Assembly (NCBI RefSeq): GCF_016862995.1
Contig: NZ_BOOA01000068.1
Coordinates: forward strand, 1-43,136
Length of the DNA: 43,136 bases
Source of the DNA: Acrocarpospora phusangensis
Lineage (GTDB): Bacteria > Actinomycetota > Actinomycetes > Streptosporangiales > Streptosporangiaceae
Reading direction: 5' to 3'
Part shown: positions 28,596 through 37,623 of the stretch, one piece after another
How positions within the stretch are numbered: position 1 is the first letter of the stretch
How the letters are laid out: every line of letters starts with the position of its first letter
Notes under the pieces: generated by a model
What the model was told of the DNA's origin: nothing
The model's database searches: none
Seen by the model: the letters and a program-made list of their open reading frames with translations, nothing else
Made by a program: the position numbers and the translations under genes

Positions 28596-29099
28596 TTAGC
28601 TATCGAGAGGCGCTGGCCATGGATCGAGACCAGGATCAGAATGCAGGCAGATCAGCGGCCGATGTGCCCGGACTGCAAGCTCCAGCCCTTCCTCAAAGGA
28701 CTTACCGAGCTCCCATATCCATCCCATTCCAGTTGCTACTATCCTGCCCTCCGATTCAAGAAATACACTGGAATAGCTGAGCCATTCCCCAATGGGAAAG
28801 TAGCTACCACCGAGAATGCCCTCGACCTCTTCAGCAAGCCCACGATGACCCGATCCCGCTGCTATCGGATCAAAACTTAAAGGCTCATCATTGCTAAAAT
28901 TTGGCCCACTAGAATTAATCGGCTCAACCACCATCCCCCCCAAGGAAGACAGTACCTCTTCAGCAAGAGGACTGAGACGATAACCCTCTTCACACAGTTG
29001 CGCAATCCAAATATCGATCGCAACTTGCCGCCCTGGCAACCACCCTGATGCGCTAATTGCAGCCAGCACATCAGGGTGCATTGAATCGAATTTTATCAT
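28596..29099 (-). CDS. SUKH-3 family immunity protein
   Basis: A 167-residue protein of the SUKH superfamily (SUKH-3), which act as antidotes to secreted polymorphic toxins. Visible pattern: GWLPGRQVAIDIWIAQLCEEGYRLSPLAEEVLSSLGGM near the N-terminus, FDPIAAGSGHRGLAEEVEGIL, the hallmark SYFPIGEWLSYSSVFLESEGRIVATGMGWIWELG, and a C-terminal EEGLELAV helix. The start is ATG 29099, with GAAAGG 6 nt upstream; the gene begins 15 nt after the toxin gene stop, same strand. Residue 74 is encoded by TTA (28878-28880), which suggests bldA-type translational dependence. Composition is more AT-rich than its surroundings, as expected of a horizontally exchanged immunity gene. It probably binds the deaminase domain of the upstream toxin. 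Confidence 0.87.
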   Translation of the reverse strand: MIKFDSMHPDVLAAISASGWLPGRQVAIDIWIAQLCEEGYRLSPLAEEVLSSLGGMVVEPINSSGPNFSNDEPLSFDPIAAGSGHRGLAEEVEGILGGSYFPIGEWLSYSSVFLESEGRIVATGMGWIWELGKSFEEGLELAVRAHRPLICLHSDPGLDPWPAPLDS

Positions 29100-29114
29100 C
29101 GACGCCTTTCGTCA

Positions 29115-32100
29115 CTAGTCGATGCCGAGGTTTTTCAACAGCCGGTGGCAGCGACCGCATGGCTTACCCGGCAGTCCATGGTCTCCCGCATTCGGCGACA
29201 TTGCATTCCGTGATTGGAGCGTGCGCATGGTCCCGCCCCTGATCGCTCCGGGGCCTTCAGATTCTTGCGCCTGGATCAGGCAGTGTACCTCAGCACAGCC
29301 GCCATGATGACCTGCATCCTCGATTGCATCCGATAGCGGCCCATCGGACTGTTGCCCGTGGCGATTATGACCGTAGTATTTTCGCCCCGAAGGGGACGTG
29401 TATTCGGAAACGAACTTTACCCCTGGTTTATTTCGAGCGCCGTCAGCATAATCCAGTAGTGGATCGCAGCCGGGATTGGTGTTATGAACCAGAATTGCCT
29501 GGTTCCCAGCCAGCACATGGTAAGTGTGTGAGCCTTCCACAGTGAGGTTGTGAACCCGTTGCCTCGTCGTCCGCTTGCTGATTGCGGAAACCTGTACTTT
29601 GACACCCGCGGACGTCTCAAGCCAGGCGCCGGGCACTAGTTGGCCTGCGGGAAGCCACGTACGAAGGTCTGGGATCCAGAACGGGTGACCGTCGGTGGCC
29701 GTGATCACTCTGGTGGCGCCACCGCGGGCTCCGTCAATGTCCACGGTGATGTCAACCAGGTGCTTCACTCCGTCACCGATGATCAGCGTGGTCACGGTCT
29801 TGGCCGCAGTCTCGTTCGTGACCGGATCAGAGGCGAGGACCAGATCTCCGACTTCGACGTCCTTGATGGGCTTCCGGGTGCCATCGGCCATGAGGATGGA
29901 GGTGCCGGGGACAAAACTGTTCGACGGTTGACAGCTATTCATGCCGGGGGAATCAACTGGTAGTTCCGGAGCGAGGTCGTTCAGGTACTCATCAATGATC
30001 CGGTCCGTGTTGTCTTCGATGAAGTCCTCGATTTGATCGCGGACGCAATTGTTGATACTCCGGCAACCTGCCGACGTAGAGCCACTAGCGACAGTTCCGG
30101 TACTGGTGCTGCGAGGCTCGATGGTGACTTCGACGACTGGACCCTTGTAGTTCTGCCGAGGGTTGTTCTCCTTAGCCGCCTTGGCCGCCGCTTTCGCGGC
30201 CTTGGCGTCCTTTGTAGCCTTATCTGCCGCCTTTTTGGCCTTGTCGGCCGCTTCCTTGGCTTTTTTAGCTTTTATTTTTGCTGCCTTGGCCGCCTTAGCC
30301 TGGGCTGCTTTGGCTTTCGCCGCCTTAGCGGCCTTAGCGGCCTGGGCCGCGCGCTTCTGCGCTTCCTGGGCCTTCTTTCGAGCTTTCGCAGCTTCTTGTC
30401 GTGCTTTTTTGGCAGCCTTTTCTGCTTCTTTTTGCGCCTTCTTAGCTTGCTTCGCGGTCGCGGCCTTTTGCGCGTCCTTCCGTGCCTTCAGAGCCTTCTT
30501 CGCGGCAGCCAATGCCTTTTTCGCAGCCTGAGTGGCCTTGTAGACGGCATTGTGGACCTTGTACGCGAGGGTGCCCTTGGCGTGGCCCCCGGTCTTCGCG
30601 AGCCGATCGGCGGCGGCCTTCTGGGACGCCTTGTATTGCTCGTAGGTCTGATAGGGCATCCTCCCCGGCCCATACGGGTTCCAGCCGAAGCGACCCGCTC
30701 CGCGGGAGGAATACCCAAGCTGCCCCCCGGCTCCGGGTAGATCGTATCCGCCACCTGTGGGGTCGGGCGGGGGATAGATCGGATAGTTTCCACCGGGGTC
30801 GGTGTGATCCAGGGGCGAACCGTTCGCGTATCCGTACCGGTTCAGCTGAATCGATGGTGACGCAGCCAGAGTGACGGTGTCGCGGGAGTTGAAGGATCCC
30901 GTGCCCGGGACGTACCACCGGGCGTGCATGTTGACCTTGCCCGTGTCCGGGTCGGTCCACTCGCTCTGGTAGCCGAGGGACCGCTGGGGTCCTGTCTGAG
31001 CCGAGACCTCTCCGAAGGGACTGAAGGCGGAGGAGCCGAGCAAGGCGGTTCCGTCGAAAGTGCCGATCACATCCGTGTGCCAGTCGGTCAGCACGCCCAG
31101 CCCGGGGCCGCCATTTTCCTGAAGACCCAGGACGTTTCCAGCAGGGTCGCGGCCGTATTTCGCGATGACCGTTCCCGATCCGTTCTGGACGCTGGCGACG
31201 TCGTTCTCCAGACCGGAGTAGAAGAACTTGGTCTCCGCGCCTCCCTTGACTCGGGACACCAGGCGGCCGAGCGCGTCGTAGTCGTAGGTGGCATCACCAT
31301 CGCTGACCATCCGGTCAAACGCGTCGAACACGTGCTGGCGAGTCGATCCCGCCCTTGTCTCGGTCTCCATCGTGCCGCGAGGGCTGAATGTGTAGGTGGC
31401 GTCATCGTCCGAGATCAGCCGGTTTCGTTCGTCGTAGGTGAAGGTCTTGGCGCCGGCCTGGATACGATTGCCGGAGGCGTCCCACACGTACGTGGTGGTG
31501 TTACCGCCAGGGTCCTGCCAGGACGTCAACCGTCCTGATCGGTCGTAGCCGTAGACGTTCGCACCGGAACCCACGAGACCCTCAGTGGTCTTAGCCGTGA
31601 GGTTGTCGTCGGCGTCCCAGCCGTAGGTAATCTTCGCGAGCTGGCTGCCTCCGCTGTTCTTCAGTGTGTGCGTGAGCAGCCGGTCCAAGTCGTCGTACGT
31701 GAAGGTCTGGCTGCCTACCGGATTGACGGAGTTGAGCGAGGTCAGGTTGTCGTTCTTGTCATAGCCGTAGGTGAAGGTCCGGCCGGACACCGGTTCCGCG
31801 GCCGTCGCCAAGCGGTTGTTGTTATCCCAAGTGAAGTTCGCCGTGCCCGAGGTGTCCACGCGTTGCAGCGGGTTACCGAGGCCGTCGTAGCTGAAGGAGG
31901 CCAGAGGGCTGCCAGATTTGGTCGCGGTGAGCAGCATGTCTCGGTCGTTGTACGTGAGCGCGTAGTCGCCGATAGAAGTTAGTCGCCCCGCCGGGTCGTA
32001 TCCGTAGCTGCGGTCAGCGGTGACGGCCTCCGCCCCGGTGCCGCTCTCCTTGGTCAGACGCTCCAGGTGGTCGTACGTGCTGTCGATCCGAACCCCGCCC

Positions 32101-35100
32101 GGCTGAAGGTTGGCGATTTCGTTTCCGGCCGCGTCGTAGACATTGGTCCAGGTACGGTCGGCGGCGGCAGGATAGGCCGTGGTGGCGGGTTCGATCTGGG
32201 ACTCAGCCAGACCGAGGCTGTTGTACGTGGTCAACATGCTATTGCCGCGCCCGTCGGTGCTGCGGGTTTGATTTCCCGCAGCGTCGTAGCCGAACGTCGT
32301 GGTGATCGAAGTGCTCGCGTCAACCGGTTCGATCAGCTTGGTGAGCATGCCGGACGCGTCGTACTCCCGCTGGACGAGGTGGCCTTCCGGGCTGGTGACG
32401 CTGACGGCATTGTCCGCGAGATCGTAGCCGATGGCGCTTGTCCGTAGCGTCGCCCCGCTGTCATCGAGGTCCTTCGATTCGATTCGGCGTCCGGCCAGGT
32501 CGTACATCAAGACGGTGGAGTTGCCGAGCGGGCTGGTGACCTTGACGGTCCGCCCGGCCAGGTCGTGGTCGAAGGTGACCGTGTTGGTCATCGGGTCGGT
32601 CTCCGCAGTTGTTTCGCCCGCCGCGTTGACCACGTAGCTGGTGATCCGGTTCCCTGGCTCGACTTGTTTGACGAGATTGTCGGCGTCGTCGTACTCGAAG
32701 GTGGTGAGGAAGGACGCGGTGCTGGGTTTACGCTCGATCACCGTTGAAGTGATCTGGCGACCGAGATCGTCATAGGTCGCCTGGACCCGGGCACCGGTCG
32801 GATCCACCCCGGCCAGTTGCTCGCCAGCCAAGTCGTATTCAGCTATCCATTTGCCACCGGTCTGCCCGGATGGGGCTGGGTCGGTGACTCTGACCAGGTT
32901 GTCGAGTTGGTCGTACTCAGCTGTAGTCACGTTGCCCAGAGGGCTGGTGTGCTGATTGACACGTCCGGCGGCGTCGTATCCGAACCGTTCCTGGGGAGTC
33001 AGGGTGCTGCCACTGGGCTGAACGTAGCTGGGATGGGTGATGCTGATGGTGCGCCCGGCCTTGTCGTAGCCGGTGACGACGGTCCGATCCTCAGCGTCTG
33101 TGCTGTGTGTCAGCTCACCGGCAGCGTTGTATCCATATTTATTGGTCGGACGGCCCGGGCCAGTGGTGCCATTTCTCTCAATCTGGACTTGCGGCAATTT
33201 CGTTTCAATCAAGCGGCCGACTAGGTCGTAACGATAGTTGGTGGTGTAGTCCGCAGAGTCGACACCAGGGGCATTGCCGCGCGGGTCGGTCACGGCGGTG
33301 ACCAGACCGCGATCGTCCACGAGGTGGGTGGTGACCAGATCGTCCGCGCCGTTCTCGACTGTCTCTCGGACCAGGACGTCGTCGTCGTTGTAGGCGTACT
33401 CGACCGTCTCGGTACGGGTGTCGCCCGTCCTGGAGAGCGACTGGCGGAGGACATTGCCGTTGGCGTCATACACAAAGGTGGATTTGCGTGCCAGGCCGGT
33501 CGGATCGAGGGTTTCGGAGGTGAGCCGGTTCGCCGCGTCGCGGACAAAGTCCATCCGGGTCTTGCCGCCACCGGTGACCGCGGAGATCAGATTGCCGGCC
33601 GCGTCATAGGTTCGCGACTCCAGGACGACGTCCCTGGCCGTGTTCGAGCCATTGAGCTTCACGTCGTCGCCGATGACCTGGGATAACTTGTCATCCGTGA
33701 AGTAGGTGTAGCTGGTCTTGCGCCCCATCACGTCGACCTTGCCAGCCAGGCGTCCACCGGGATCGTAGGAGTAGGAGAGGAGGACCTTGTCGGTGGCTGG
33801 GGTCGGGGCGACCGGACTGCCCGTCCAGGCTTTGATGGTGGCCGTTGCCCGTTCCCCACGCGCCGTATACGTCTGTTCGTATCGTGTCCCCGACTCGTCG
33901 ATCAGACTGGTCTGTGCCCCAGTCTGGTCCCAGCCGTAGGTGACCGTTCCACCCTCGGGTCCAAGGACCGTCTGCACCCGGCCGAAGTTGTCGTAGGTGT
34001 AGGTGACCTTCCGATCCGGATCGCCGCCGCTGAGGTCGGAGGCGGTTTCGGTCAGGGTATTGCCGTCCACGTCATAGGTGTAGGTGAAGCGGCTGGTGTG
34101 CGTCACACCGGTGACTTCGTTCTCGACCGCTGGAGTGGTGTGCGTCAGCACCCGGGACAGTCCGTCGTAAGTGACCGAACTAGTGATTCCGCTCGGTTGG
34201 GCATCAGAGATCTCGGTCTGTGAGGTGGCGCGGCCGATTGCGTCCCGCCCGTACTCAGTAATCAGGCCGGTTGCGGAGGTGGTACGGACGAGGTCACCCG
34301 TCGCCGAGTACTCATGGCTAATCGTCTTGTTGCGGGGATCGACGAAGGTCTCGATCAAGCCAGCCGGGACGGTTCCGCCGCCATCCGCGACTTCAGTGCC
34401 ATCGGTGTAAGTCGTGATCCAGAAGCGGCCAGACGGGAAATCCGGTGTGCCGGGAGACGTGTGCTTGGACTCCTCGCCAAAGGCGGTGTACTCCCAGGTA
34501 GTTGCGTACGTGTTGTCCGTCGCTGAGGTGGATCGGGCGTCCCGGAACGAGATGGGCTGGTCGTTTCGGGGATCGAACTTGTTGGCAGCATTGAGGAAGT
34601 AGGAGCTGTAGGAGGTCTGGCAGTTCCCGGCGGTACGGCAGGTCTTCTCGGTCAGGACGTTGCCGCGCGCATCGTGCGTCAGCTCGGTGGTGTTGCCATT
34701 GCGGTCGATCGTCTTGGCCAGGTAACCGCCGGTGTCGTAGGTGTGGGAGGTGATCTTGTTCAGCTGGTCGGTCTCGCTGACCAGGCGGTAGCCGCGGCGA
34801 GCGTCGTGGACGTATTTGAGCGTTCCGCTTCTGGGGTCGGTCACCGTCACCGTGGACAAGCCGGTCACCTTGTCATAGATGGGCACACCGAGCGTCCAAG
34901 TGCCGCCCTCGTCATCGGTGTGAGTCTTGACGCGATCAGTGGCCGCGTCATAGATGTTCTCCGCCCAAACCCGGCCCGACGGCAGAGTGACCTTGGTCAG
35001 TTTGTTGGGGAGCGCCGCGCCGCCCGCGAAGTGCCGCTGGACCTCGGCGGCCGTGAGCGGGCGCTCATAAACTGCGACCTCGTCCAGAGTGCCCTTGAAT

Positions 35101-37133
35101 GGGAAGGTGGCTGTGGTGGAGGTGGGTGCGGACGGCCAAAAGCTCGCCCAGGCGCCCATCACACCATTGCCCACCGACGCGAAGGATGGCCACTGATCGA
35201 ACTGGGCACCAGGCTGGGTGCCCACAGGCTGGCCATCCAGGTAGAGGGTCTCGCTGGTGCCGTTCACGGTCAGCACCGCATGGTGCCACTGCCCGTTGTT
35301 GACGGCGGCGGCAGAGGTGATGGGCAGGATCGGCGAGGGTCCACCCGTTTCCGGCCTCTCCAGGTACTGGGCGCGTAGTTTGCCGTCGTTGCCGACGTAG
35401 ATCACTGGCTGGCGAGGCACGTTCGAGGTGGCTGTGCTGGCCGCCGAAAGCAGCACACCATTCTGTGTGGTCTTGAACCAGACTTCGAACGAAAGGAACG
35501 TGGACAACCGAGCCAAGGTATTGGCGGGCAGCCGCACATGACCTGCGGTCATCGAGACGGCCGTGTCGAGGGTGCCGGCCAGCGCGCCGGCTTGAGCCAG
35601 GGTGGCGCTGGTATAGGTTGCCGGATTCCCCGCCCAACCGAGGTCGCCGGCCACGGTGCCGGAGGTCTCGTTCAATCGCCAGTAACTAACGGGGTCGGAG
35701 TCCAGCACGCGAGTCCGGTACTGCGAACCGGTGCCGTAGGCGTAGTTGACGCACTCGCTGGTAGGCGGGCAGACCCTGGTGAGATTGTCTCCCGTGTAGG
35801 TGTACGCCCAGGTGAGCGGTGCTCCGTTAACCGCGTCGGTGGAGATCGTCGCCACGCGGTTGCCGTTCCAGGTCAGCGTTAGCTTCCGTCCTCCGACGCC
35901 GGTCACGGTCGAAAGCTTGCCGTCGCCTCCATAGGTGAGGGTCTGGGTACGCCCGCGATTGTCGGTGATCCTCAGCAGGCGTCCCGACGAGTCGAAGTGA
36001 TAAGAGGTGGCGTCCTTGTCCATCAGCCGCCAGCCGCCGCCGCTCACCGTGGCGAGCGTGGCGTACATTCCCGCCGGGGGCTCGTAGCTGCCGTCACCCT
36101 TCGCGCCGAACCTCAACTGCCGCCCGTCGGGGTAGGTCACCAGTAGCGTCGCACCGGAGTCCTCCACCGCGATCTTCATGTCCCAGCGTGCCGTCCAGCC
36201 CGACCCGAAAATGCCGTCGGTACGCGGGTCGAGGCTGTTGTACCACCGCGCCACCGACATGGTGGGACCCGCAGTCGCCACCGTCGCATCGGTGAACTGA
36301 GCCGTGTAGTTGCCGGCGAGTTGGTGGAACTCCTGACCGTTCACGCCAGGGGTGGCGAGTTGCGAGGTGATCTTCGTATCCCGCACGGCCGTGGTGAACG
36401 TGCGGACCGGGCTCACGAACGACTCGGTGGTAACCCGGTTGATCATGAACACCTGCCAGTAGTACTGCTTGTCCCACTGGAGACGCCCGGACGGAACTTT
36501 CCAAGAATTCGCGCTCTGCTGGCCCGACTCCCAGCAGTTGGTCGCCGAGGTGGGCGGCCCGTCACACACCAGGAACCAGTAGTCGACACCGCCGGATGGA
36601 TTCGTCGCGAAAGCGATCATCAACGGCGTAAGCGTACCGACGGCAGCAAAATCGGCAGGTGCCCCGTCGACGAACGTAGGCGGGGCCAGCAACGACGCCT
36701 CAGCCGCCGCGGTGACCTGAGGAGCGGCCAGGTGCGGGAACTTCGCTTCCCACCAGTGGCGGGGCGGCTTAAGGGTCTTCTTGACGCGATCACGGATTCG
36801 GCTTACGGGGACCGGATCGATCCCTTTCATGCTGCCAGGAGAACGGTTCTCAAGGGGCAACGCGCCTTCAGGGCGCTTCTCTGTACGGACGACAACCGGT
36901 CCGGCCGGTCCAACCTGTGACGAGGTCACGGCGACATCCACCAAGTGCGGAAAACCCTCCGCCGTACCGGACGATTGGACTGGCAACACTAATCGGATAG
37001 GTGACGGCGCTGGATCCGCGGCCGCAGGATGGCTGACCACCTGGATAAGGCCGGGGAAAACGGCAACCAGGACCACCAGTACCGTTCGGGTCAACAGCCT
37101 GCGTACAGGCAGGACAGCAGGGTACCCGGGCAT
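29115..37133 (-). CDS. RHS-repeat polymorphic toxin with LamG, HINT and YwqJ-like deaminase domains
   Basis: A 2672-residue secreted protein. Order: signal peptide (1-39, cut after HPAAA); fibronectin-like region (about 170-265); DUF6531-like start of the RHS shell (about 285-325, ARWYNSLDPRTDGIFGSGW); LamG domain (about 476-700, VSYWRLNETSG); YD/RHS repeats (about 720-2040); the RHS core end (LGYQSEWTDPDTGKVNMHARWY, about 2050); a Lys/Ala-rich segment (about 2198-2324); a pretoxin HINT domain (about 2396-2548, NSFVPGTSILMADG to VLAGNQAILVHNT); and a C-terminal YwqJ-like deaminase domain (about 2551-2672) with HHGGCAEVHCL and PCGRCHRLL, i.e. the Zn-binding H/C-A-E and PCxxC set. The target is probably a nucleic acid or nucleotide base (established for deaminase toxins, inferred here). 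GGAG is 6 nt before ATG 37133. The immunity gene follows by 15 nt. Confidence 0.95.
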   Translation of the reverse strand: MPGYPAVLPVRRLLTRTVLVVLVAVFPGLIQVVSHPAAADPAPSPIRLVLPVQSSGTAEGFPHLVDVAVTSSQVGPAGPVVVRTEKRPEGALPLENRSPGSMKGIDPVPVSRIRDRVKKTLKPPRHWWEAKFPHLAAPQVTAAAEASLLAPPTFVDGAPADFAAVGTLTPLMIAFATNPSGGVDYWFLVCDGPPTSATNCWESGQQSANSWKVPSGRLQWDKQYYWQVFMINRVTTESFVSPVRTFTTAVRDTKITSQLATPGVNGQEFHQLAGNYTAQFTDATVATAGPTMSVARWYNSLDPRTDGIFGSGWTARWDMKIAVEDSGATLLVTYPDGRQLRFGAKGDGSYEPPAGMYATLATVSGGGWRLMDKDATSYHFDSSGRLLRITDNRGRTQTLTYGGDGKLSTVTGVGGRKLTLTWNGNRVATISTDAVNGAPLTWAYTYTGDNLTRVCPPTSECVNYAYGTGSQYRTRVLDSDPVSYWRLNETSGTVAGDLGWAGNPATYTSATLAQAGALAGTLDTAVSMTAGHVRLPANTLARLSTFLSFEVWFKTTQNGVLLSAASTATSNVPRQPVIYVGNDGKLRAQYLERPETGGPSPILPITSAAAVNNGQWHHAVLTVNGTSETLYLDGQPVGTQPGAQFDQWPSFASVGNGVMGAWASFWPSAPTSTTATFPFKGTLDEVAVYERPLTAAEVQRHFAGGAALPNKLTKVTLPSGRVWAENIYDAATDRVKTHTDDEGGTWTLGVPIYDKVTGLSTVTVTDPRSGTLKYVHDARRGYRLVSETDQLNKITSHTYDTGGYLAKTIDRNGNTTELTHDARGNVLTEKTCRTAGNCQTSYSSYFLNAANKFDPRNDQPISFRDARSTSATDNTYATTWEYTAFGEESKHTSPGTPDFPSGRFWITTYTDGTEVADGGGTVPAGLIETFVDPRNKTISHEYSATGDLVRTTSATGLITEYGRDAIGRATSQTEISDAQPSGITSSVTYDGLSRVLTHTTPAVENEVTGVTHTSRFTYTYDVDGNTLTETASDLSGGDPDRKVTYTYDNFGRVQTVLGPEGGTVTYGWDQTGAQTSLIDESGTRYEQTYTARGERATATIKAWTGSPVAPTPATDKVLLSYSYDPGGRLAGKVDVMGRKTSYTYFTDDKLSQVIGDDVKLNGSNTARDVVLESRTYDAAGNLISAVTGGGKTRMDFVRDAANRLTSETLDPTGLARKSTFVYDANGNVLRQSLSRTGDTRTETVEYAYNDDDVLVRETVENGADDLVTTHLVDDRGLVTAVTDPRGNAPGVDSADYTTNYRYDLVGRLIETKLPQVQIERNGTTGPGRPTNKYGYNAAGELTHSTDAEDRTVVTGYDKAGRTISITHPSYVQPSGSTLTPQERFGYDAAGRVNQHTSPLGNVTTAEYDQLDNLVRVTDPAPSGQTGGKWIAEYDLAGEQLAGVDPTGARVQATYDDLGRQITSTVIERKPSTASFLTTFEYDDADNLVKQVEPGNRITSYVVNAAGETTAETDPMTNTVTFDHDLAGRTVKVTSPLGNSTVLMYDLAGRRIESKDLDDSGATLRTSAIGYDLADNAVSVTSPEGHLVQREYDASGMLTKLIEPVDASTSITTTFGYDAAGNQTRSTDGRGNSMLTTYNSLGLAESQIEPATTAYPAAADRTWTNVYDAAGNEIANLQPGGVRIDSTYDHLERLTKESGTGAEAVTADRSYGYDPAGRLTSIGDYALTYNDRDMLLTATKSGSPLASFSYDGLGNPLQRVDTSGTANFTWDNNNRLATAAEPVSGRTFTYGYDKNDNLTSLNSVNPVGSQTFTYDDLDRLLTHTLKNSGGSQLAKITYGWDADDNLTAKTTEGLVGSGANVYGYDRSGRLTSWQDPGGNTTTYVWDASGNRIQAGAKTFTYDERNRLISDDDATYTFSPRGTMETETRAGSTRQHVFDAFDRMVSDGDATYDYDALGRLVSRVKGGAETKFFYSGLENDVASVQNGSGTVIAKYGRDPAGNVLGLQENGGPGLGVLTDWHTDVIGTFDGTALLGSSAFSPFGEVSAQTGPQRSLGYQSEWTDPDTGKVNMHARWYVPGTGSFNSRDTVTLAASPSIQLNRYGYANGSPLDHTDPGGNYPIYPPPDPTGGGYDLPGAGGQLGYSSRGAGRFGWNPYGPGRMPYQTYEQYKASQKAAADRLAKTGGHAKGTLAYKVHNAVYKATQAAKKALAAAKKALKARKDAQKAATAKQAKKAQKEAEKAAKKARQEAAKARKKAQEAQKRAAQAAKAAKAAKAKAAQAKAAKAAKIKAKKAKEAADKAKKAADKATKDAKAAKAAAKAAKENNPRQNYKGPVVEVTIEPRSTSTGTVASGSTSAGCRSINNCVRDQIEDFIEDNTDRIIDEYLNDLAPELPVDSPGMNSCQPSNSFVPGTSILMADGTRKPIKDVEVGDLVLASDPVTNETAAKTVTTLIIGDGVKHLVDITVDIDGARGGATRVITATDGHPFWIPDLRTWLPAGQLVPGAWLETSAGVKVQVSAISKRTTRQRVHNLTVEGSHTYHVLAGNQAILVHNTNPGCDPLLDYADGARNKPGVKFVSEYTSPSGRKYYGHNRHGQQSDGPLSDAIEDAGHHGGCAEVHCLIQAQESEGPGAIRGGTMRTLQSRNAMSPNAGDHGLPGKPCGRCHRLLKNLGID

Positions 37134-37623
37134 GCGTCACTCCAAATTGAACACATAGAAAGTGAACAGTTACCGTGGCTTGGCCGACCCAGCGTGCGGC
37201 TTGTTCCAAACCATGAAATGGCCCCATCGGTTCCGTGCCATGGGACGTCGGTCAGAAGTGATACGGGATGATCATCCCACTGATGTGCATATCAAGCCGG
37301 GCTGGAATATGCCCTTGCTGCGCGTGATGTATAGGCTACGCTGACAGTTCCATGTACCGATTTGCCACCCGATTAACCGCCTTGCGGTGCTATACCAGCA
37401 GTTAAGTTGATCTCTGACCGTCTGTCAACGATCTACAAGGACTTCCATGCAAGTCCGCCAGGCGGACGTCGATGGTCTAACGCGTCGTGCCGCCATCGCA
37501 GCGGATCGTGTTCCGTCCCGGACCTACCACGGCATTTGCCCGCGAACGTGTGACCCGCAAGCAATGGTGGGCCTTGGGCCACTTCGGCGGGTGCGGCGGG
37601 CCGTGGTAGACGTTCAGGAGTAC
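37134..37623. other. Leader region of the RHS toxin gene, no gene seen
   Basis: About 490 bases between the RHS toxin start and the integrase stop, both on the minus strand. Open frames here have no known family. TATACA and TAGCCT near 37327-37336 (minus strand) could be promoter elements, but no matching -35 is seen. The long leader could hold toxin-gene control sites; none is recognised. Confidence 0.5.

What the first reader, a model, noticed from the sequence alone, without database searches (positions are those of the whole stretch)
28596..37133. RHS toxin with YwqJ-like deaminase tip paired with a SUKH-3 immunity gene
The last 120 residues of a 2672-residue RHS protein carry HHGGCAE and PCGRC, the zinc-deaminase signature, placed after a HINT domain ending VHNT. 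A SUKH-3 gene follows by 15 nt. The combination signal peptide + LamG + RHS + Lys/Ala segment + HINT + deaminase is an elaborate contact-dependent or secreted weapon. The pairing of toxin and antidote is known for the families; the exact target (DNA, RNA or nucleotide) is unknown.
Basis: partly seen in the sequence, partly recalled or inferred. Interest (0 to 1): 0.7.

Follow-up and report, generated by a model that had tools for sequence, protein, structure and literature searches.

The report
RHS toxin with deaminase-like tip
A bacterium carries a very large, probably secreted weapon protein whose last 120 residues look like a zinc enzyme that removes amino groups from bases, and the next gene looks like the matching antidote; this is a known kind of bacterial toxin system whose exact chemical target is still unknown.

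Summary
On the minus strand a 2672-residue ORF (29115-37133) has a signal-like start, RHS repeats, a LamG domain, a Lys/Ala-rich segment, PT-HINT and a 120-residue tip with CAE...PCGRC. A SUKH-3 gene (28596-29099) starts 15 nt later; it is the only SUKH-3 match in the 9.1-Mb draft genome.

The tip alone is below the Pfam cut-offs of PF00383 and PF14431 (YwqJ). A profile of 13 relatives matches YwqJ-type domains (hhalign 93%). A weak AlphaFold model's best 44 Foldseek rows are all cytidine or blasticidin S deaminases, none under E 0.001. Three Cys and the Glu are invariant in those 13; more distant tips with C-x-L were left out.

Tip and antidote move together: against the two nearest relatives tips are 71-84% identical, antidotes 65-75%, HINT domains 41-56%. 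GC3 falls from 0.81 (RHS) to 0.57 (tip) and 0.46 (antidote).

Best reading: an ordinary polymorphic toxin with a divergent YwqJ-like deaminase tip and a SUKH-3 immunity protein, a pairing listed in 2012. The substrate is open; resemblance to cytidine deaminases and published B. subtilis YwqJ data keep a small-molecule target possible.

The parts
29115..37133 (-). RHS polymorphic toxin, 2672 aa: N-terminal signal-like segment, DUF6531, RHS repeats with inserted LamG, Rhs core, Lys/Ala segment, PT-HINT, deaminase-like tip
   Evidence: signal peptide by eye
35037..35549 (-). Laminin_G_3 domain (residues 529-699) inserted near the start of the RHS region
   Evidence: PF13385 E 2.2e-17
30789..31025 (-). 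RHS-associated core (residues 2037-2115)
   Evidence: TIGR03696 E 1.6e-15
30144..30563 (-). Lys/Ala-rich, probably helical segment (about residues 2191-2330)
   Evidence: sequence, bounds by eye; GC3 0.64
29481..29894 (-). PT-HINT autoprocessing domain (residues 2414-2551) ending VHN
29118..29477 (-). Deaminase-like tip, 120 aa (residues 2553-2672), HHGGCAE and PCGRC motifs
28596..29099 (-). SUKH-3 immunity protein, 167 aa
29100..29114 (-). 15-nt junction between toxin stop and antidote start, with GAAAGG

Best explanation
A polymorphic toxin and its immunity gene. The RHS shell is exported, probably through the Sec pathway (inferred). The HINT domain then cleaves at its terminal Asn and frees the tip (inferred from the domain family). 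In a neighbouring cell the tip, a compact Zn-dependent deaminase with three Cys ligands and a catalytic Glu, deaminates a base, most likely cytosine in a nucleic acid or a free nucleotide (family by homology, substrate inferred). The SUKH-3 protein binds the tip in the producer and its kin and blocks it (inferred from family and co-movement). Tip plus SUKH-3 is an exchangeable cassette swapped between RHS-HINT backbones (shown by comparison of three loci).
For: Domain hits: RHS, LamG, PT-HINT, SUKH-3. Deaminase: PF00383 at 0.0043 and PF14431 at 0.023 for the tip, sub-threshold; of the 10 A1 tips, 7 match PF00383 (best 3.7e-4) and 5 match PF14431 (best 5.4e-6) at E up to 1. The 13-tip profile A5 against the YwqJ-type profile A6: 93.4%, P 2.5e-7. 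A5 against the own genome's cytidine deaminase: 73% (P 3e-5), or 66% with a longer stretch; against two other own-genome deaminases, L078 and L081: 0.3% each. AF2 tip model: helix-b1-b2-helix-a1-b3-a2, pLDDT 60, pTM 0.57; the best 44 of 50 Foldseek rows shown are cytidine or blasticidin S deaminases, many being chains of the same entries. Cassette: tip 71-84%, immunity 65-75%, HINT 41-56% among window, L013, L014; GC3 0.81 RHS, 0.71 HINT, 0.57 tip, 0.46 SUKH-3. SUKH-3 next to the tip at 17 of 28 loci scanned, with one copy in the own genome. Two further own-genome RHS-HINT proteins end in other tips, by eye.
Against: No deaminase model passes its curated cut-off for this tip. No Foldseek match is under E 0.001; in the deaminase rows TM is below 0.4 and rmsd about 7-11 A. 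Two of the five AF2 models are far worse (pLDDT 44 and 43). phmmer of tip and antidote against the PDB finds nothing up to E 10. The tip ends 10 residues after its last Cys, so the last strands of a full deaminase core (recalled) are missing or minimal. Eleven of 28 loci scanned have no SUKH-3, one of them (L025) inside the tree group that holds the window tip (97/94). In the window GC3 already drops before HINT (0.64 and 0.63 in residues 2191-2400), so the cassette edge is not sharp there; in L013 the antidote (0.59) is no lower than the tip (0.57). The SUKH model failed (pLDDT 37), so binding was not examined.
Confidence: 0.85

Rival explanations
1. The tip acts on free nucleosides or nucleotides (cytidine-deaminase-like) and kills by upsetting a pool, not by editing DNA or RNA.
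For: Of three own-genome deaminases compared, the tip profile matches the cytidine deaminase best. Profile and fold neighbours in the PDB are cytidine and blasticidin S deaminases. CAE with PCGRC is close to the own-genome CDA motifs. PMC8321402 (passages) reports that induced B. subtilis YwqJ had no effect on chromosome or rRNA and may act on small molecules.
Against: The CDA match covers only 22-23 columns around PCGRC, and the YwqJ-type profile A6 matches the same CDA at only 4.5%. The B. subtilis data concern a distant protein, and an assay for lost nucleic acid would miss base editing. Three other deaminase-toxin families tested in PMC7901873 mutate DNA (passages). The model is weak.
Confidence: 0.3
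2. The tip edits DNA or RNA bases like DddA or SsdA and is mutagenic at sub-lethal doses.
For: Representatives of three deaminase-toxin families (BaDTF1-3) caused C-to-T changes in DNA (PMC7901873 passages).
Against: No Pfam deaminase-toxin family other than YwqJ is listed for the tip at E up to 1, and no DddA or SsdA structure is among the 50 Foldseek rows shown of 506.
Confidence: 0.5
3. The zinc site is kept for structure or binding and the tip is not a deaminase.
For: Short C-terminus; related SUKH-3-paired tips have C-x-L in place of C-x-E (L028, L030, L067, L069).
Against: C61, E63, C107 and C110 (A1 numbering) are invariant in the 13 tips of A5. This is weakened by selection: A5 was built after L028 and L030 had been seen, and they were left out; in the wider set of 21 aligned, 18 have the Glu and 3 have Leu.
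Confidence: 0.1

Closest known systems
YwqJ-like deaminase toxins (PF14431) paired with SUKH proteins, as listed in Zhang et al. 2012 (PMC3482391)
   Same: C-[AP]-E and HG-x4-PCxxC motifs, short end after the last Cys, SUKH-3 neighbour; the paper's tables list SUKH with YwqJ deaminases, and HINT and RHS with deaminase toxins (passages)
   Different: Scores below the PF14431 cut-off; HH before GGCAE; only about 67 columns align at profile level
Cytidine deaminase / blasticidin S deaminase
   Same: CAE and PCGRC; best rows of the fold and profile searches
   Different: Tip of a 2672-aa protein; shortened C-terminus; substrate untested; matches weak
DddA (BaDTF1) and SsdA (BaDTF2) interbacterial deaminase toxins
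   Same: Deaminase toxin with a cognate immunity protein (PMC7901873 passages)
   Different: HxE zinc motif in those families (recalled); DddA delivered by T6SS (abstract start); SsdA's inhibitor is all-helical; no family hit
Own-genome RHS-HINT paralogues (L051, L052)
   Same: RHS shell plus PT-HINT with Ser at block A
   Different: Other tips, by eye; a stretch over HINT (37%) and parts of the RHS region align to L051; the blastp script overwrote the L052 protein with another frame, so L052 was not compared

Membership tests
Polymorphic RHS-HINT toxin | RHS repeats with core, then HINT, then variable tip | tested here: met
   two other own-genome RHS-HINT proteins with other tips by eye (31, 39)
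Polymorphic RHS-HINT toxin | Tip and immunity gene exchange as a cassette independent of the backbone | tested here: met
   identities in three loci; GC3, edge not sharp in the window
Polymorphic RHS-HINT toxin | Export and HINT cleavage | not testable with these tools
   signal peptide by eye only
Deaminase superfamily | [HCD]xE and CxxC motifs, conserved | tested here: met
   invariant in A1 and A5; three A5 rows have one residue more between the two Cys; C-x-L relatives not in A5
Deaminase superfamily | b-b-a-b-a core | tested here: inconclusive
   model order fits, pLDDT 60, no Foldseek match under 0.001
YwqJ-like deaminase PF14431 | Score above the curated cut-off | tested here: not met
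   15.3 bits against 25.9 for the tip; own-genome search 0 matches at 0.001
YwqJ-like deaminase PF14431 | Profile-level relationship to YwqJ-type domains | tested here: met
   hhalign 93%, P 2.5e-7
SUKH-3 PF14433 | Score above the curated cut-off over the full domain | tested here: met
   48.1 bits against 23, profile 2-141 of 146
SUKH-3 PF14433 | Binds and neutralises the toxin | not testable with these tools
   no complex model; single model failed
DddA-like (SCP1.201) deaminase | Match to a Pfam model of that family (its presence in Pfam is recalled) | tested here: not met
   only PF00383 and PF14431 listed for the tip at E up to 1

The most novel reading that the evidence does not exclude
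The tip belongs to a branch of YwqJ-like toxins, seen here in actinobacteria, that act as exported cytidine-deaminase-like enzymes on free nucleosides or nucleotides. It would be a pool-poisoning interbacterial deaminase, unlike the DNA-mutating toxins DddA, SsdA and BaDTF3, with SUKH-3 as its inhibitor.
Probability: 0.25. Interest if true: 0.55.

Novelty: new member of a known kind. Interest (0 to 1): 0.3.

Why it matters
I did not find an established substrate for YwqJ-like toxins in the papers listed (passages of three papers seen). This branch offers a 120-residue, motif-complete tip with a single-gene antidote, small enough for direct biochemistry, and a possible source of new base-modifying enzymes. 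As a system, however, it is ordinary.

Tried and rejected
Selenocysteine: 3 of the 34 related loci (G039, G337, G1052) carry an in-frame TGA inside the first zinc-motif region. I tested whether this could be recoded. tRNA-Sec is present in G039 and G337, but 217 of 341 genomes of the family have it (strict filters), and G1052 has none at E 1e-9. RNA hairpins can be folded after the motif in TGA and intact copies alike, so they do not discriminate. Rfam finds nothing at the gathering score at L061 and L062. The G039 copy is an orphan: the same frame upstream has only part of a HINT domain and no RHS shell. The G337 copy is also frame-disrupted. G1052 runs on past its normal end, by eye. I take them as decayed orphan cassettes, though a TGA in the same motif three times is odd.

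Spread on mobile elements: a scan of viral contigs confirmed no relative (one pattern, 8 stretches); plasmids gave 1 record, Streptomyces coeruleorubidus. The phage collection was not searched.

Structure of the antidote: unusable. PDB sequence search with tip or antidote: nothing. VIA-align: library absent.

Rows dropped: L073 (by eye a compositional read, not a tip), L077 (locus not resolved by my script), L010 and L012 (not recovered). In one search the tip boundaries of L008 and L011 were parsed wrongly, and their identities are not used.
Full report
What is there. On the minus strand of the window, 29115-37133 encodes one uninterrupted 2672-residue protein and 28596-29099 a 167-residue protein that starts 15 nt after it. 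The junction carries a GAAAGG stretch before the ATG, so the two are probably made from one mRNA. Pfam finds RHS repeats (22 stretches), Laminin_G_3 at 529-699, DUF6531 at 273-342 and PT-HINT at 2414-2551; NCBIfam adds the RHS core at 2037-2115. A Lys/Ala-rich segment of about 140 residues lies between core and HINT. The N-terminus looks like a signal peptide by eye. The neighbour is SUKH-3 at 48.1 bits against a cut-off of 23. It is the only SUKH-3 match in the 9.1-Mb, 219-contig genome, so its place next to the toxin is unlikely to be chance.

The tip. Alone, the last 120 residues reach PF00383 at 17.4 bits (cut-off 25) and PF14431 YwqJ at 15.3 bits (cut-off 25.9), both sub-threshold. Relatives came from the order (12 of 297 genomes), the family (16 of 341), the class (18 of 394; overlapping sets, each count including the own genome) and the genome collection (L013 at 74% and L014 at 69%). 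In 10 aligned tips H57, C61, E63, H100, C107 and C110 are invariant. In 13, the three Cys and the Glu remain invariant, but by then I had seen L028 and L030 with C-x-L and left them out; of 21 tips aligned, 18 have the Glu and 3 have Leu. Against single deaminases of the own genome it matches the cytidine deaminase at 73% (66% with a longer stretch), but L078 (TadA-like by eye) and L081 only at 0.3% each; L079 was not compared. The CDA match covers only 22-23 columns around PCGRC, and the YwqJ-type profile matches that CDA at only 4.5%.

Structure. AlphaFold on three sequences gave pLDDT 60 and pTM 0.57 for the best model, with the order of elements expected of a deaminase core up to helix 2; two of the five models were near pLDDT 44. 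Foldseek found no match under 0.001 and TM stays below 0.4, yet the 44 best rows (many of them chains of the same entries) are all blasticidin S or cytidine deaminases. A profile search of the PDB gave 11 rows under E 10, ten of them cytidine deaminases, best E 0.054. The tip ends 10 residues after the last Cys. Its relatives and the YwqJ-type domains mostly end within about 10-20 residues too, so this looks like a family trait, not damage.

Toxin and antidote travel together. Window, L013 and L014 share tips at 71-84% and SUKH-3 proteins at 65-75%, while their HINT domains are only 41-56% alike. GC3 falls from 0.81 (RHS) through 0.71 (HINT) and 0.57 (tip) to 0.46 (SUKH-3); in L014 the last three are 0.95, 0.65 and 0.51, in L013 0.74, 0.57 and 0.59. 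In the window the segment before HINT is also low (0.63-0.64), so the edge is not sharp there. I count 34 distinct loci; 28 had the next gene (or, in L068, the same frame) scanned with Pfam, and SUKH-3 is there in 17 of the 28. L068 has tip and SUKH-3 in one frame. Six of the 17 (L068, L071, L072, L074, L075, L076) are by eye classical YwqJ-type tips. The 11 without SUKH-3 have other neighbours, such as a family of about 90 aa beside CGE-type tips, or an LRV/HEAT-repeat protein (L026); one of them, L025, falls in the tree group of the window tip. The six not scanned are L020, L023, L027, L066, L073 and L077. The own genome holds two more RHS-HINT proteins whose tips look different by eye. This is the behaviour that defines polymorphic toxins.

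How it works. Shown: architecture, motif conservation in the branch, cassette movement. Inferred: export, HINT release of the tip, deamination in a target cell, and inhibition by SUKH-3. The substrate is open. Three deaminase-toxin families tested mutate DNA (PMC7901873, passages), but B. subtilis YwqJ had no effect on chromosome or rRNA and that paper suggests small molecules (PMC8321402, passages). The nearest solved enzymes found here, cytidine and blasticidin S deaminases, act on free nucleosides (recalled). That makes a pool-directed toxin a fair rival at about 0.3.

Known or new. Zhang et al. 2012 (PMC3482391, passages) already list SUKH proteins with YwqJ deaminases, and HINT and RHS with deaminase toxins. 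The window locus is therefore a new member of a known kind, in a branch that Pfam's YwqJ model does not reach at its cut-off for this tip. Literature searches.

Noticed in passing
L024/L061 (G039), L027/L062 (G337), L066 (G1052): Three related tips carry an in-frame TGA inside the first zinc-motif region. Two of the genomes have tRNA-Sec (base rate 217 of 341 in the family) and the third has none at E 1e-9; the copies look like orphan or decayed cassettes, so decay is likelier than recoding.
   Followed up: partly
L028, L030, L067, L069: A group of YwqJ-like tips followed by SUKH-3 genes has C-x-L where C-x-E is expected, so it may lack deaminase activity or do other chemistry (three of the four in the tree).
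   Followed up: partly
L068:1501-2322: YwqJ-type deaminase and SUKH-3 immunity domain in one open frame.
   Followed up: no
window 29481-29894 and L051, L052, L005, L006, L013: The HINT domains have Ser at the block A nucleophile position where Cys is usual (recalled): in all 4 of 11 proteins where my pattern found block A and in both own-genome paralogues.
   Followed up: no
window 29478-29480: The residue after the HINT Asn is Thr here, Cys in 7 of 8 relatives parsed rightly, and Asp in L006.
   Followed up: no
L006, L008, L007, L009, L027: CGE-type tips are followed by a family of about 90 aa rich in charged residues; L006 and L008 neighbours have no Pfam family above cut-off, the others were judged by eye: a possible unnamed immunity family.
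   Followed up: no
window 37134-37450: A+T-rich stretch (G+C 0.53 against 0.69 for the window) just upstream of the toxin gene.
   Followed up: no
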